In this document: one piece after another, positions 44,336 to 50,752 of the stretch
How the letters are laid out: every line of letters starts with the position of its first letter
Position numbering within the stretch: the stretch's first letter is position 1
Source of the DNA: Nitrospirota bacterium
Lineage (GTDB): Bacteria > Nitrospirota > Nitrospiria > 2-01-FULL-66-17
Length of the DNA: 58,630 nucleotides
Assembly: GCA_016201825.1 (NCBI GenBank)
Contig: JACQCD010000067.1
Location: 1-58,630 of the forward strand
Direction of reading: 5' to 3'
Notes under the pieces: model-generated
Databases searched by the model: none
Told to the model about the DNA's origin: nothing
The model's input: the letters and a program-made list of their open reading frames with translations, nothing else
Translations under genes and position numbers: made by a program

Positions 44336-46966
44336 ATGATCGGTATCATTAGGAAGATTGTTGGAAGCAAAAATGACCGCGAGTTGAAGAGGTTGGCGCC
44401 CCTTGTCGACCGAATCAATGCGGTGGAATCCTCCGTTCAAGTGGTGCCTGACGAGGCCCTTGTGGGCAAGACCGTCGAGTTTCGTGCTCGGCTTCAGAGC
44501 GGCGAACAGGTGGACGATCTCTTGCCTGAGGCCTTTGCAGTGGTGCGTGAAGCGTCGCGCCGGGTCTTGGGGATGCGCCACTTTGATGTGCAATTAATCG
44601 GCGGGATCGCGCTCCACGAAGGCAAGATCGCCGAGATGAGGACCGGGGAGGGGAAGACCTTAGTGGCCACCCTTCCGGTATACCTCAATGCGTTGAACGG
44701 CAAAGGGGTCCATGTTGTCACCGTCAACGATTATCTCGCCAAGCGAGACAGCCAATGGATGGGAGAGCTGTATCGATTTCTCGGGCTTACGGTGGGGGTG
44801 ATCCAGCACGATCTGGATGACGCCGCGCGACAAGCGGCCTACTCGAGCGACGTCACGTACGGAACCAATAACGAGTTCGGATTCGATTATCTTCGGGACA
44901 ACATGAAATTCGACCCTCGCCAATTTGTCCAGCGCCCACTAGGATTTGCCATCGTCGACGAGGTCGATAGCATTCTGATCGATGAAGCACGGACTCCTCT
45001 GATTATCTCAGGACCGGCTGAAGACTCTACCGAGCTCTACTACAAAATCAACAAGGCGATTCCCTACCTTAAAGCGGACGTCGATTACGCCATCGAAGAG
45101 AAGACGAAAACTGCAGCGCTGACCGAAGAAGGCAACGCGAAAATCGAACGGTTTTTAGGCGTTGAGAATCTATACGATCTCGGCAATATGTCGCTTGTCC
45201 ACCACGTCCATCAGGCATTGAAGGCGCATTCGCTGTATAAGCGAGATGTGGATTATGTGGTCAAGGATGGCGAAGTCCTCATTGTGGACGAGTTTACCGG
45301 TCGTCTCATGCCGGGGCGGCGGTGGAGCGATGGTCTGCACCAGGCGGTTGAAGCGAAGGAAGGGGTGAGGATTGCGAATGAGAATCAGACGCTGGCCACG
45401 ATCACCTTCCAGAACTTTTTCCGAATGTACAAGAAGCTGAGCGGGATGACGGGAACTGCCGATACCGAAGCCGCCGAATTTGCCAAGATTTATAATCTCG
45501 ATGTGATGGTGGTTCCTCCAAATCGCCAGATGGTTCGTGAAGATGCTCCCGACGTTGTGTACCGGACTGAACGGGAGAAGTTTGCGGCGATCGCTGAAGA
45601 AATAGTGGATTGTCACCAGAGGGGCCAGCCGGTCTTGGTGGGAACGATTTCGATTGAGAAATCCGAACGGTTGTCGGCGTTGCTCAAAAAGCAGGGGATT
45701 AAGCATGCGGTGCTCAATGCGAAGTTTCATGAAAAAGAGGCCGAAATCATCGCGCAGGCCGGCCGCAAAGACGCAGTGACCATTGCCACGAACATGGCCG
45801 GCCGCGGGACCGATATTCTGTTGGGAGGTAACCCGGACTTTCTCTTTAAGCAGTGGCTGGCCCGGGAGCCCGATATGGCGGAACCCGGCGCTGAAGTCCA
45901 GAGGCGCGAGGCTCGGGAGCGGTTTAGGGCCGAGTGTGAGGCCGAGAAGCGAGAGGTGATTGCGGCGGGGGGGCTCCACATCATCGGCACCGAGCGGCAC
46001 GAGAGCCGGCGCATCGATAACCAATTACGCGGGCGGGCGGGGCGACAGGGTGATCCCGGGTCGTCCCGGTTCTATCTCTCGCTCGAAGATGATCTCTTGC
46101 GGATCTTCGGGGCCGAACGCATTTCCGGATTGATGCAGCGACTGGGGATGGAGGAAGGGGTTCCGATCGAGCACCGCATGGTCACGCGCGCCATTGAGAC
46201 CGCCCAGAAGAAGGTCGAGGCTCACAACTTCGATATCCGGAAGCAGTTGCTCGAATATGACGATGTGATGAACAAGCAGCGGGAGGTGATCTACGAGCAG
46301 CGCCGACAGGTGCTGAGTGGAGCGCCGTTCGTCGACGACATCAACGGGATGATCGAGGACGTGATCGATTCCCTGGTGGCTCAATATTGCAGTGCGGCCA
46401 GCTATACCGAGGCATGGGACCTGAAAGGGCTGACCGAGGCACTCAACACCCAGTTCTCTTTGACCTTCGAGTCAAACGCCTGGCAGGGCGTTGGGATAGA
46501 CGCCGTCAAAGAAGGCATCCGCCAGGAGGTGCGCCAGGCGTACGAACGGAAGGAAAAGGAATTCGGGTCGACCGTGTTGCGCGAGTTGGAGAAGGCGGTG
46601 ATGCTCCGGGTGATCGATACCCATTGGAAAGATCACCTCTTGACCATGGATTACCTCAAGGAAGGCATCGGGCTTCGAGGATACGGCCAAAAGGATCCGC
46701 TGATCGAGTACAAGCGGGAAGGGTTCGACCTGTTCGCCGGTATGATTGACCGGATGAAATTCGATGCGATCGGACATCTGTTCCGGATCCAGGCCATCCG
46801 ACAAGAACCGGTCGTCCGCCCCTCCCCCCCCCCGATCTTCAGCGTCCCTGGACTGGCCCCCCAGGCGGCTCCGTCGTCCGGGCATCGAGACAAGGAGCGA
46901 ATCGGCCGAAACGACCTTTGCCCCTGCGGCAGCGGGAAGAAATACAAGAAGTGCCACGGCGGCTGA
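44336..46966 (+). CDS. secA: Preprotein translocase subunit SecA
   Basis: [34 protein letters not shown]-terminal zinc motif [18 protein letters not shown]. Confidence 0.97.
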
Positions 46967-47016
46967 CGGGTTCTCCCTCCTCGAAGGCTGGCGCGAAACC
47001 GCTACCGCGGCTTCAG

Positions 47017-48147
47017 GTGGAGGTTGTCTCGCTTCGCTCCCAACTCCGGGAAAAGGCCAAGCAATTGGCCTTTTTTATTAATACCGGCAAGGCGCTGACC
47101 TCCACCCTCGAACTCGATAAGGTGCTGGACATCATCGTGGAACGGGCCAATCGCTTGATACCCTGTGAGCGCTGGTCTCTGCTGCTTGTTAATGAGGGGG
47201 AAGGCCGACGGGAACTCATCGTCCGGCTGGCCAAAGATGGGCGGCGTGGTTCCGCAAAACCTCGTCCGATTGCCTGGGGGCAGGGCCCGGCGGGTTGGGT
47301 TGCGCAGCAGGCCAAGCCGCTGCTGATCGAGGATCGGCAGATCCCTCTGCCCCCGGCACTCCGAAACTGGAAATGTCCCCGGTCCGGGTTCCGTTCGTTG
47401 CTTGCGGTGCCTATCACGAATAAACGGAAGATCTTGGGGGTGTTGGAGATGATCAACCGGGCGGACGGCCGCCCGTTCGACGCCACCGATCGAGATCTGT
47501 TGCTTCAGCTAATGGGGCAGGCCGCCATCGCGATCGAGCGGTCACAGCTGTACCAACGTATGAACGAACTGACCGTGACCGACGACCTCACGAAGCTCTC
47601 CAACTTCCGTCACTTGAACCAAGCTCTGGACGTCGAGATCCGACGGTGCGTCCGTTATGGGTCCGTGCTCTCCCTGATTTTCTTGGATCTGGATTACTTC
47701 AAAGTGGTGAACGATCGCTACGGCCATCTCATGGGCAGTCGGGTGTTGGTGGAGGTGGCCGAGCTCTTGATCCGGAATCTTCGCGATGTGGATATCATTT
47801 CACGGTACGGCGGCGACGAGTTCGTCGTGGTGTTACCCGAAACGGGTTTGCGCACCACGCAGGTTATTACCAAGCGCTTGCATCGAGCGTTCCACCGCCA
47901 TGAGTTTTTGAGTGAGGAAGGCCTGAAGCTCAGCCTGACGGCCAGTTTCGGTATTGCGGGTTTTCCCGATCACGCGCGCAATAAGAAGGATCTGATCCGC
48001 CTGGCTGACCAAGCGATGTACGAGGCGAAATACGGCGGCCGTGACCGTATTTGTATGGCACGACGTCGGGCGACGAGAGACCAGGGCGGCCAGGTTCGTT
48101 CCCACTCCTTCCCTGTTTCCCCGCTCAAAAGGGCTGTCCAGCCGTAA
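47017..48147 (+). CDS. GAF-GGDEF diguanylate cyclase (start uncertain; ORF opens at 46918)
   Basis: GAF domain; RDVDIISRYGGDEFVVVLPET (RxxD I-site + GGDEF). Confidence 0.9.
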   Translation: MEVVSLRSQLREKAKQLAFFINTGKALTSTLELDKVLDIIVERANRLIPCERWSLLLVNEGEGRRELIVRLAKDGRRGSAKPRPIAWGQGPAGWVAQQAKPLLIEDRQIPLPPALRNWKCPRSGFRSLLAVPITNKRKILGVLEMINRADGRPFDATDRDLLLQLMGQAAIAIERSQLYQRMNELTVTDDLTKLSNFRHLNQALDVEIRRCVRYGSVLSLIFLDLDYFKVVNDRYGHLMGSRVLVEVAELLIRNLRDVDIISRYGGDEFVVVLPETGLRTTQVITKRLHRAFHRHEFLSEEGLKLSLTASFGIAGFPDHARNKKDLIRLADQAMYEAKYGGRDRICMARRRATRDQGGQVRSHSFPVSPLKRAVQP

Positions 48148-50752
48148 GGTAAAAGTGGGGAGCCTGCTCTTTGGGTTTTAGGCTCTCTTCAACATGAATG
48201 GGAAAGGCGACGTCGAACCGAGTGACCACGGGATACAGGCCGAGAAAGTCGTGGGTCAGCCGCAGTCCAACCCCCACGTCGGTTCGGTAACGGCTGTATG
48301 AGGACACCGTCCCGATGTCCGCAAAGGCGGCTGCTTGGAGCCGCCGGAGGACGGTGATGCCCCCCAGATTGGTTTCGAGCTCGCGAATGAGCGGATAGCG
48401 GTATTCCAGCGACCCCAGAACGATAGACTCCCCGGACAGGTTCGTCGGGGAATACCCGCGCATCCCTCCGCTGCCTCCCAGATCGTATCGACGTTCCTCA
48501 TGCAATCCCCCCAATGATTGGCCCACCACGGCGCGACCCGCGACCTCGTGAAGCGTTGCGACCGGCCACTGTCGATGAATGTCAAGACGGAGCTTGATGG
48601 CGTGAGGATGGGGGCTGCCGACCACTTTCTGAGCGAGATCGGTCGTAAATGTCGAATACGGGATGTTCCCGAAGACCAGCCGCTGGATGTCGGCTGAATA
48701 GATCAGGGGGGTTTTGGCGTTGGAAACGGTGTGTGTGAGGTGAAGAGCTGTGAACGGTGCGGTCGACGCACTGGTGGCCAGCGGGATATTCTGCTTGCTA
48801 TAGGAGACGGCCAAGCTGAGCGACTGACGCGTTAAGTAGGACAGGATGTCGCTGTCATAGCTGTGGCCGAATCCGGCTGTCGCGGCCGTTGATGTGTCGC
48901 TTTTGGAGTAACTGAAACGCAGAATATTGTCTTCATCGTACAGACGCTGGAAATACGCGCTGAAATCGTAACTCAAGTTCTTTGTTTGGAGATCGTAACT
49001 AAAACCGGGGAAATTCTCCAAGATGAATTTGATGGCGGGCGGTTGCCGGTCGTTGAATCGCTGAGGATCGCTGGTTTTATGATCGGGGTCGAGGTGCACG
49101 ACCGTGACCGGTGACGGCGTGACGAAGGTCTCCTGGTACGAAGGTTCGTAGGAGAGCCAGGTGGTGGTCAGCGGTGGGCCCCTGCGCTGGCGGAGCCGAA
49201 TGGCCACCGGCTCGATCCCTTCGCCGGTCCTGGTGATGGCGAGCGTGGTGTGATAGCCGTCGGGTCTGCGTTCCTCCGTCACGGAAGCGATGGCGTAGTC
49301 GGTCGAGGGATTGACCGACAGCCATTGCCGATAGAACCATTCAAGGTCGCGATTGGTGGTCTCTTGAGCGACCTCGCGAAACGGTCTCGGCGTGTGTTGC
49401 GTCACCAGCTCTACGTAATCGTGCAAGAGGTTGTCAATCGTCGGCTGTCCCAAGAGGGCCGTCAGCTTGAAGAGCATCGTCGAGCCGTCGGGGCGCCGGT
49501 TGTTGAAGAGCGCGATATCTTCTCGTGGAATGATGGGGGTGGCCTCTTTGAAGTAGACCTGTCGGAGTGGGAGTTTCTTGGAATAGAGGATCTGGTCCAC
49601 GAGTGGATAAAACGAGAACGGTTTGAGCAGCCGCAGCAGATTGGGGGGATGTCGATAGCGATCTTTCATGTACAGTTGCGAGCCGGCTTCGGCAAGTCCT
49701 TCCAGGACCCATGCCTCCTCGTCAGGGAGCCGGGCTCGCCACAGCGCAAAGAGCAGACTCTTGATGAGTTCCGCCTCGTGGTATTTCTGCAACGGCCAGA
49801 AGACCTGAAACAGTCGGGTGCTGACCAGGCTGACGCCTTCGTGAGGCGACACGAGATTCTGATGTAAGTAGGCTGCGGCAAGCACCACCTCGGGGATCGG
49901 GGCGTTTCCGTATTCCCGGCGGTAAAACGCGAGCCCGTGGCGCAGCGTCTCCATGATCTTGGCCACGTATCGGCGGTCGGGGGGAAGGAAGAAATACCTG
50001 AGGCGAGTGGGGCCATCCTGTTCGACGCGCTCGAGGTACGACGGGCTGAATGCGAGCGCGACGGTGGTTGATCGCTCGGACCGATGGATCCACGTCGTTG
50101 TCTCGCTCTGGGGATCGCCCGGCTCCGCCTCCGCGCCGGCGACGGTCATGCCTCGCGGCGTGGTGATCCTCACGAGGAATTGGGCCGGATCGGGCAACAT
50201 GTCAACGGCCCACTCGCCTTCGCGGAAGGCAGGCACGTAGGGATACCATCCGCCTTGTACCACCGTCACGCCGTGAAACTGCCCGAACACGCCGAATTTC
50301 TCCGGAATCACGGTGGTGAACCCGACCCGAAGGCGGATCGATCGTTCCGGAGGCAGGGGCTGGGGCAGAAACACCCGCGCGAGCATGTGCGGTCCGGCGC
50401 CATCGACGATCCCGAACTGCAGGGCGCCGCCGTCGTCCGTTTCGACGGTCGTGAGCGTGATCGATCCTGGATTGAACTCGCGGGGGTAGATCGCTTCAGA
50501 CTGGGTCCGATCGAGGGCCGGGTCGGGTTCGCGGTAGAGATTGGGATAGAGAATCAGCAGCACATCGCCGAGCTTGTCCTCCGAATGGTTGGTGACGGTC
50601 AGCAGGATGACGCCGCTGAGCGTGTGGCTGGCTGGCGAAAACGCGACGTTCATGTCATAGCGGACATCGAGCGGCGCAGCGGTGACGGGAGCCGCTGCCC
50701 ATAGAAAAAGGGCGGCCGCGTAAGCGACCCGCCCCCACCTGGACCGTTTCAT
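48125..50752 (-). CDS. M1-peptidase-like (degenerate) N-terminal region fused to Omp85/D15-type beta-barrel
   Basis: YHEAELIKSLLFALWRARLPDEEAWVLEGLAEAG resembles the M1 zinc region without HExxH; C-terminal LGGSGGMRGYSPTNLSGESIVLGSLEYRYPL and AAFADIGTV... typical of surface-antigen barrels. Confidence 0.8.
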   Translation of the reverse strand: MKRSRWGRVAYAAALFLWAAAPVTAAPLDVRYDMNVAFSPASHTLSGVILLTVTNHSEDKLGDVLLILYPNLYREPDPALDRTQSEAIYPREFNPGSITLTTVETDDGGALQFGIVDGAGPHMLARVFLPQPLPPERSIRLRVGFTTVIPEKFGVFGQFHGVTVVQGGWYPYVPAFREGEWAVDMLPDPAQFLVRITTPRGMTVAGAEAEPGDPQSETTTWIHRSERSTTVALAFSPSYLERVEQDGPTRLRYFFLPPDRRYVAKIMETLRHGLAFYRREYGNAPIPEVVLAAAYLHQNLVSPHEGVSLVSTRLFQVFWPLQKYHEAELIKSLLFALWRARLPDEEAWVLEGLAEAGSQLYMKDRYRHPPNLLRLLKPFSFYPLVDQILYSKKLPLRQVYFKEATPIIPREDIALFNNRRPDGSTMLFKLTALLGQPTIDNLLHDYVELVTQHTPRPFREVAQETTNRDLEWFYRQWLSVNPSTDYAIASVTEERRPDGYHTTLAITRTGEGIEPVAIRLRQRRGPPLTTTWLSYEPSYQETFVTPSPVTVVHLDPDHKTSDPQRFNDRQPPAIKFILENFPGFSYDLQTKNLSYDFSAYFQRLYDEDNILRFSYSKSDTSTAATAGFGHSYDSDILSYLTRQSLSLAVSYSKQNIPLATSASTAPFTALHLTHTVSNAKTPLIYSADIQRLVFGNIPYSTFTTDLAQKVVGSPHPHAIKLRLDIHRQWPVATLHEVAGRAVVGQSLGGLHEERRYDLGGSGGMRGYSPTNLSGESIVLGSLEYRYPLIRELETNLGGITVLRRLQAAAFADIGTVSSYSRYRTDVGVGLRLTHDFLGLYPVVTRFDVAFPIHVEESLKPKEQAPHFYLTAGQPF

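What the first reader, a model, noticed from the sequence alone, without database searches (positions are those of the whole stretch)
48125..50752. Pseudo-M1-peptidase fused to an Omp85-type barrel
The N-terminal ~550 aa resemble an M1 aminopeptidase, but the zinc motif HExxH is HEAEL (49766-49780) while the downstream E-G-L-A-E segment is kept (WVLEGLAEAG), so catalysis is probably lost. The C-terminus has the Omp85/D15 hallmark GGMRGY (48452-48466) and barrel strands. A surface-antigen barrel with a catalytically dead peptidase as its periplasmic or extracellular domain, in place of POTRA repeats, suggests a binding or chaperone role in outer-membrane secretion or assembly.
Basis: partly seen in the sequence, partly recalled or inferred. 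Interest (0 to 1): 0.75.

Follow-up and report, generated by a model that had tools for sequence, protein, structure and literature searches.

The report
Dead aminopeptidase fused to Omp85 barrel
An uncultured Nitrospirota bacterium makes an outer-membrane barrel protein that carries, in place of the usual POTRA domains, a whole aminopeptidase-shaped domain that has lost its active site; relatives in at least three phyla share this build and the same loss, so the domain was probably kept to bind something rather than to cut it.

Summary
ORF 48125-50752(-), 875 aa, has a signal peptide, an M1-aminopeptidase-fold region (about aa 27-560) and an Omp85-type barrel (about aa 561-875). HHalign against intact M1 peptidases gives 98.9% probability over 480 columns. 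Foldseek on an AlphaFold2 model (pLDDT 85) returns M1 aminopeptidases for the whole chain and TamA/BamA for the barrel alone. No POTRA is found. Two corrections: the barrel is predicted to have 14 strands, not 16, and the HEAEL loss is not local. In 53 diverse barrel-fused homologs (Nitrospirota, Planctomycetota/PVC, Myxococcota and others) none has HExxH at the active site, whereas all 14 barrel-less M1 relatives examined do. First His H325 is nearly invariant; the second His is always replaced. Both halves are under similar purifying selection. The same genome also has BamA, TamA-TamB, and a separate Omp85 protein with an intact HEYAH peptidase-like segment and a PD40 propeller. No description of a pseudo-M1-Omp85 architecture turned up in the papers consulted. 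Best reading: a POTRA-less Omp85 subfamily with a periplasmic pseudopeptidase acting as a binding or docking module. The fold and the loss are well supported; what it binds and transports is inferred.

The parts
48125..50752 (-). Whole gene, 875-aa pseudo-M1-Omp85 fusion, including stop codon
   Evidence: homologs of the same architecture
50675..50752 (-). Sec-type signal peptide, about aa 1-26 (basic start, hydrophobic helix, AxA-like end; no lipobox Cys)
   Evidence: sequence; AlphaFold2 helix 5-19
50012..50674 (-). M1 N-terminal all-beta (saddle) domain, aa 27-247
   Evidence: HHalign to intact M1; model; Foldseek
50237..50254 (-). GGWYPY motif, aa 167-172, near-invariant in the Nitrospirota and nearest PVC members
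   Evidence: variable in some Planctomycetota and Myxococcota members
49310..50011 (-). M1 catalytic-like domain without active site, aa 248-481
49766..49780 (-). Degenerate zinc motif HEAEL, aa 325-329
   Evidence: position 329 is L, V or I in the 19 members of A1
49682..49702 (-). EGLAEAG, aa 351-357, with the would-be third zinc ligand E351
   Evidence: E351 is Q in one A1 member and is lost in several Myxococcota/Planctomycetota members
49073..49309 (-). All-beta domain between the catalytic-like domain and the barrel (M1 domain III-like), aa 482-560; not a POTRA
   Evidence: only strands at aa 484-554; aligned within the M1 match
48128..49072 (-). Omp85 barrel, aa 561-875, 14 predicted strands, C-terminal Phe
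   Evidence: Pfam Omp85 590-875 E 7e-11; barrel-only model; Foldseek to TamA/BamA E 8e-9
48452..48469 (-). GGMRGY, Omp85 loop-6 motif, aa 762-767
   Evidence: the RG pair is kept in nearly all members shown, the aromatic is not

Best explanation
The protein is a member of a conserved Omp85 subfamily in which an inactive M1-aminopeptidase-fold module replaces the POTRA domains. It is exported by Sec and inserted in the outer membrane by its barrel. The pseudopeptidase most likely sits in the periplasm directly before the barrel, since the predicted barrel has an even number of strands and Omp85 barrels have both ends on the periplasmic side. There it most likely uses the former peptide-binding groove or nearby surfaces to dock a peptide or protein client, or a partner, and to position it at the barrel, much as POTRA domains do for BamA/TamA. 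Shown: ORF, domain make-up by homology and predicted fold, absence of HExxH across the family members examined, purifying selection on both parts. Inferred: periplasmic side, client binding, transport or assembly role.
For: M1 homology over the whole N-terminal region: HHalign prob 98.9, E 3.5e-17, 480 columns. Full-length AlphaFold2 model pLDDT 84.9, pTM 0.79, with IRAP/ERAP1/PepN as top Foldseek hits. Barrel: Pfam Omp85 and Foldseek to TamA/BamA. Zinc motif absent from 53 of 53 fused members (the one HExxH string, in L090, lies at residue 52 of its open frame, outside the domain) and present in 14 of 14 barrel-less relatives, 8 of which were fetched from hits of the same family profile. In A1 the catalytic-like part is as conserved as the barrel (mean pairwise identity 0.41 and 0.42). 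dN/dS is 0.17-0.31 for the M1-like part and 0.18-0.26 for the barrel, though dS above 1 makes these rough. Among relatives searched, families f1, f3, f6, f9, f11 and f13 had a match in every listed genome. Own genome has separate BamA-, TamA- and TamB-type hits, so this protein is additional. Published parallels: the PlpD patatin domain resides in the periplasm (PMC11116518), and Tma108, an M1 member treated as a pseudopeptidase, appears to bind nascent chains through its substrate pocket (PMC11266112).
Against: No experiment bears on topology, client or function. The neighbourhood does not point to a pathway: SecA and a GAF-GGDEF gene lie convergently downstream in several relatives, and upstream genes differ. 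The conserved His, Glu, Asp and Glu of the Nitrospirota members (H325, E351, D386, E411) leave room for an unusual metal site in that clade. Monophyly of the fused clade has low tree support (0.168).
Confidence: 0.55

Rival explanations
1. Type Vd-like autotransporter: the M1-like domain is a passenger carried through the barrel to the surface, where it acts as an adhesin or receptor.
For: The patatin domain of PlpD was long thought to be translocated by its barrel (PMC11116518). The order enzyme-like domain then barrel is the same.
Against: Experiment placed the PlpD patatin domain in the periplasm (PMC11116518). The window model has about 530 folded residues and a small 14-strand barrel. No cleavage site was looked for.
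Confidence: 0.17
2. Still an enzyme: an atypical metal or metal-free active site in the M1-like domain.
For: In the 19 members of A1, H325, W348, D386, R397 and E411 are invariant and E351 is kept in 18.
Against: The second zinc His is L, V or I in all A1 members, and E326 varies (D, R, A). E351 is lost in several members of other phyla while H325 mostly stays, which fits a structural role better.
Confidence: 0.1
3. Outer-membrane anchor for a pseudopeptidase that regulates or scaffolds periplasmic proteases, with the barrel serving as anchor only.
For: A review states that pseudopeptidases act by protein-protein interaction, sometimes regulating active relatives (PMC11266112). The same genome has two barrel-less M1 proteins over the Pfam cut-off.
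Against: The Omp85 RG loop motif and barrel are conserved like the rest, which a pure anchor would not need.
Confidence: 0.15

Closest known systems
Omp85 superfamily (BamA, TamA)
   Same: Same barrel fold and RGY loop motif; barrel-only Foldseek hits are TamA and BamA
   Different: No POTRA; 14 instead of 16 predicted strands; barrel profile scores only 12 bits against the own-genome TamA but 46-60 bits against HExxH-PD40-Omp85 barrels
PlpD (patatin-Omp85)
   Same: Enzyme-fold domain N-terminal to an Omp85 barrel, domain in the periplasm (PMC11116518)
   Different: PlpD has a patatin-like domain, and Omp85 proteins are described there as having at least one POTRA and 16 strands; here a pseudo-M1, no POTRA, 14 predicted strands
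Omp85 subfamilies of Heinz and Lithgow 2014 (Metallo, noNterm, Lipo and others)
   Same: Non-POTRA Omp85 architectures
   Different: In the passages read, Metallo is defined by PF00149; the words peptidase and Nitrospira have no match in the main text
M1 aminopeptidases and the pseudopeptidase Tma108
   Same: M1 fold, possible use of the substrate pocket for binding
   Different: Tma108 keeps HExxH in the review's table; here the motif is lost, and the domain is tied to a membrane barrel
HEYAH peptidase-PD40-Omp85 protein of the same genome (L071)
   Same: Peptidase-like segment fused to an Omp85 barrel; this kind of protein has the nearest barrel by profile among those compared
   Different: Intact HEYAH, a PD40 propeller in between, and no M1 Pfam hit

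Membership tests
Omp85 superfamily | Omp85 barrel homology | tested here: met
   Pfam PF01103 E 7e-11, above cut-off; Foldseek to TamA/BamA, best E 8e-9
Omp85 superfamily | RGY/F loop-6 motif | tested here: met
   GGMRGY aa 762-767; R765 and G766 invariant in A1
Omp85 superfamily | 16-strand barrel | tested here: not met
   14 strands in the full-length and barrel-only models; predictions only, not a solved structure
Omp85 superfamily | At least one POTRA domain | tested here: not met
   No POTRA hit in Pfam; segment before the barrel is all-beta and belongs to the M1 match
M1 peptidase family (fold) | Homology over the M1 core | tested here: met
   HHalign prob 98.9; Foldseek top hits M1
M1 peptidase (active enzyme) | HExxH followed by Glu zinc site | tested here: not met
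   HEAEL here; absent from all 53 fused members examined
Patatin-Omp85 (PlpD type) | Patatin-like domain | tested here: not met
   No patatin hit in Pfam
Metallo Omp85 (Heinz and Lithgow) | PF00149 domain | tested here: not met
   No such hit in Pfam
Omp85 transporters/insertases | Protein assembly or translocation activity | not testable with these tools
   needs bench work

The most novel reading that the evidence does not exclude
A previously undescribed, multi-phylum class of POTRA-less Omp85 proteins with 14-strand barrels, in which a pseudo-aminopeptidase recognises peptide or protein clients in the periplasm and hands them to the barrel, so that a dead protease has taken over the substrate-recognition job of POTRA domains.
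Probability: 0.3. Interest if true: 0.8.

Novelty: new variant of a known kind. Interest (0 to 1): 0.58.

Why it matters
In the Omp85 literature consulted, POTRA domains are treated as a hallmark of the superfamily. A conserved subfamily that does without them, and carries a pseudopeptidase instead, would be a natural test of what the periplasmic part must do. It also adds, to a review list in which M1 is represented by Tma108, a bacterial M1 pseudopeptidase lineage in which loss of the active site goes together with fusion to a barrel. The sharp split (0 of 53 fused, 14 of 14 barrel-less) makes a testable claim about how enzymes turn into binding modules.

Tried and rejected
Single-sequence Pfam and PDB searches did not show the M1 part of this protein; only profile and fold methods did. 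A PDB hit to nitric oxide synthase 1 at E 0.16 was judged chance. Neighbouring genes were examined for a pathway: convergent SecA and GAF-GGDEF, and in some genomes divergent complex I genes, which look like conserved location rather than function. The idea that HEAEL is a local mutation or assembly error was rejected because no family member examined has HExxH. A surface-antigen reading in the immunological sense has no support. Literature searches for M1-Omp85 fusions, Omp85 with pseudoenzymes and Omp85 with gluzincins gave nothing relevant; a Manganitrophaceae genomics paper does not mention it.

Full report
What is there. The ORF 48125-50752 on the minus strand encodes 875 aa. It begins with a Sec-type signal peptide (sequence). 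Pfam recognises only the Omp85 domain, aa 590-875, E 7e-11; single-sequence searches do not see the M1 part. Among 19 relatives, 5 match Peptidase_M1 weakly, best E 0.0048.

Evidence for the M1 fold. A profile of the family aligned with five Nitrospirota M1 peptidases that have intact HExxH gave HHalign probability 98.9, E 3.5e-17, 480 columns, query consensus 28-568. An AlphaFold2 model built with 22 sequences has mean pLDDT 84.9 and pTM 0.79. Its top Foldseek hits in the PDB are insulin-regulated aminopeptidase, ERAP1 and PepN, E about 1e-20 to 1e-17, TM about 0.4 over the whole chain. The low whole-chain TM reflects at least in part that the barrel is unmatched (my inference). Secondary structure runs beta saddle (29-246), mixed catalytic-like part (249-480), beta part (484-554), then barrel.

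Evidence for the barrel. Modelled alone it has pLDDT 84.6 and 14 strands, as in the full model: nine strands before the RGY loop and five after. From general knowledge BamA has 16, so two N-terminal strands appear to be missing. Foldseek on the barrel alone returns TamA and BamA, best E 8e-9, TM about 0.5. No POTRA was found by Pfam, and the segment before the barrel is all-beta.

The active site. HEAEL (aa 325-329) and E351 sit where HExxH and the third ligand sit in intact relatives. The spacing from H to E is 26 residues here and 22 in the intact Nitrospirota relative L027. In the 19 members of alignment A1, H325 and W348 are invariant, E351 is kept in 18, position 326 is E, D, R or A, and position 329 is only L, V or I. 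Across further members from Planctomycetota and Myxococcota H325 mostly persists while E351 is lost in several. I therefore read H325 as structural.

Fused against barrel-less. I collected 53 barrel-fused members and 14 barrel-less M1 relatives. None of the fused members has HExxH in the domain; the only string match, in L090, is at residue 52 of its open frame, upstream of the domain. All 14 barrel-less proteins have it. Eight of the 14 came from hits of the same profile, so an intact motif does not hide a relative from this search; a strongly diverged active fusion could still be missed. In a FastTree tree the fused members form one group, but the node support is 0.168, so a single origin is not established.

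Selection and spread. Mean pairwise identity in A1 is 0.37 (saddle), 0.41 (catalytic-like), 0.39 (beta part) and 0.42 (barrel). dN/dS between three close members is 0.17-0.31 for the M1-like part and 0.18-0.26 for the barrel; dS exceeds 1, so these are rough. In the search of 99 relatives every listed genome of families f1, f3, f6, f9, f11 and f13 matches, while family f2 shows only short, weak matches. Named relatives are Nitrospirota MAGs (Manganitrophaceae, Troglogloeales and a RIFCSPHIGHO2 genome that is the nearest, 69% identity), with more distant ones labelled PVC group, Planctomycetota, Deltaproteobacteria and Myxococcota. Profile searches around a Myxococcota and a Planctomycetota genome found many more; many rows there are partial matches to barrel or saddle only.

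Context. Downstream, convergent and overlapping by 23 bases, is a GAF-GGDEF gene, then SecA; FIST and an M32 peptidase lie on the other side. In several related genomes SecA and GGDEF are kept next to the gene, and upstream genes vary, in some a SAM methyltransferase and complex I subunits. I take this as conserved location, not a pathway. The genome has four Omp85 hits: this one, two strong ones of which one lies beside TamB (so TamA) and the other is taken as BamA, and a HEYAH-PD40-Omp85 protein.

How it probably works. The protein is exported, its barrel inserts with the terminal Phe typical of barrel proteins, and the pseudopeptidase lies in the periplasm where POTRA domains would be. The former peptide groove, or another surface, is likely to bind a client or partner. 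This rests on analogy: the PlpD patatin domain is periplasmic (PMC11116518), and Tma108 appears to use an M1 pocket for nascent chains (PMC11266112). No client is known.

Novelty. The Omp85 classification paper describes ten subfamilies; in the passages read none is M1-based, and the word peptidase does not occur in its main text. The pseudo-metallopeptidase review lists Tma108 for M1 and has no match for Omp85. Searches covered only open-licence papers, and I read only parts of the papers cited, so absence of a description is not proof of novelty. I file it as a new variant of a known kind.

Noticed in passing
L071:2068-4980 (G000 contig 72, same genome): 970-aa protein with an intact HEYAH...WMIEGLA segment, a PD40 propeller and an Omp85 barrel; four further loci (L079-L082) with a matching barrel also keep HEY[AT]H. 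A putatively active peptidase-Omp85 architecture that may deserve its own look.
   Followed up: partly
L073:650-2968 (G000 contig 65): 773-aa barrel-less M1 protein with HEILH; a candidate intact counterpart in the same genome.
   Followed up: partly
window 48125-48147: The 3' ends of this gene and of the convergent GAF-GGDEF gene (46918-48147) overlap by 23 bases.
   Followed up: no
L075 (G301), L038 (G052), L051 (G415): Some homologs appear split or have a low-scoring gap between M1-like part and barrel (in L038 two ORFs); frameshift, assembly error or real divergence not separated.
   Followed up: no
L030 and L007 (G019): One Manganitrophus-group genome carries two copies of the family, and the second copy has HRMRI in place of HE at the motif.
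   Followed up: no
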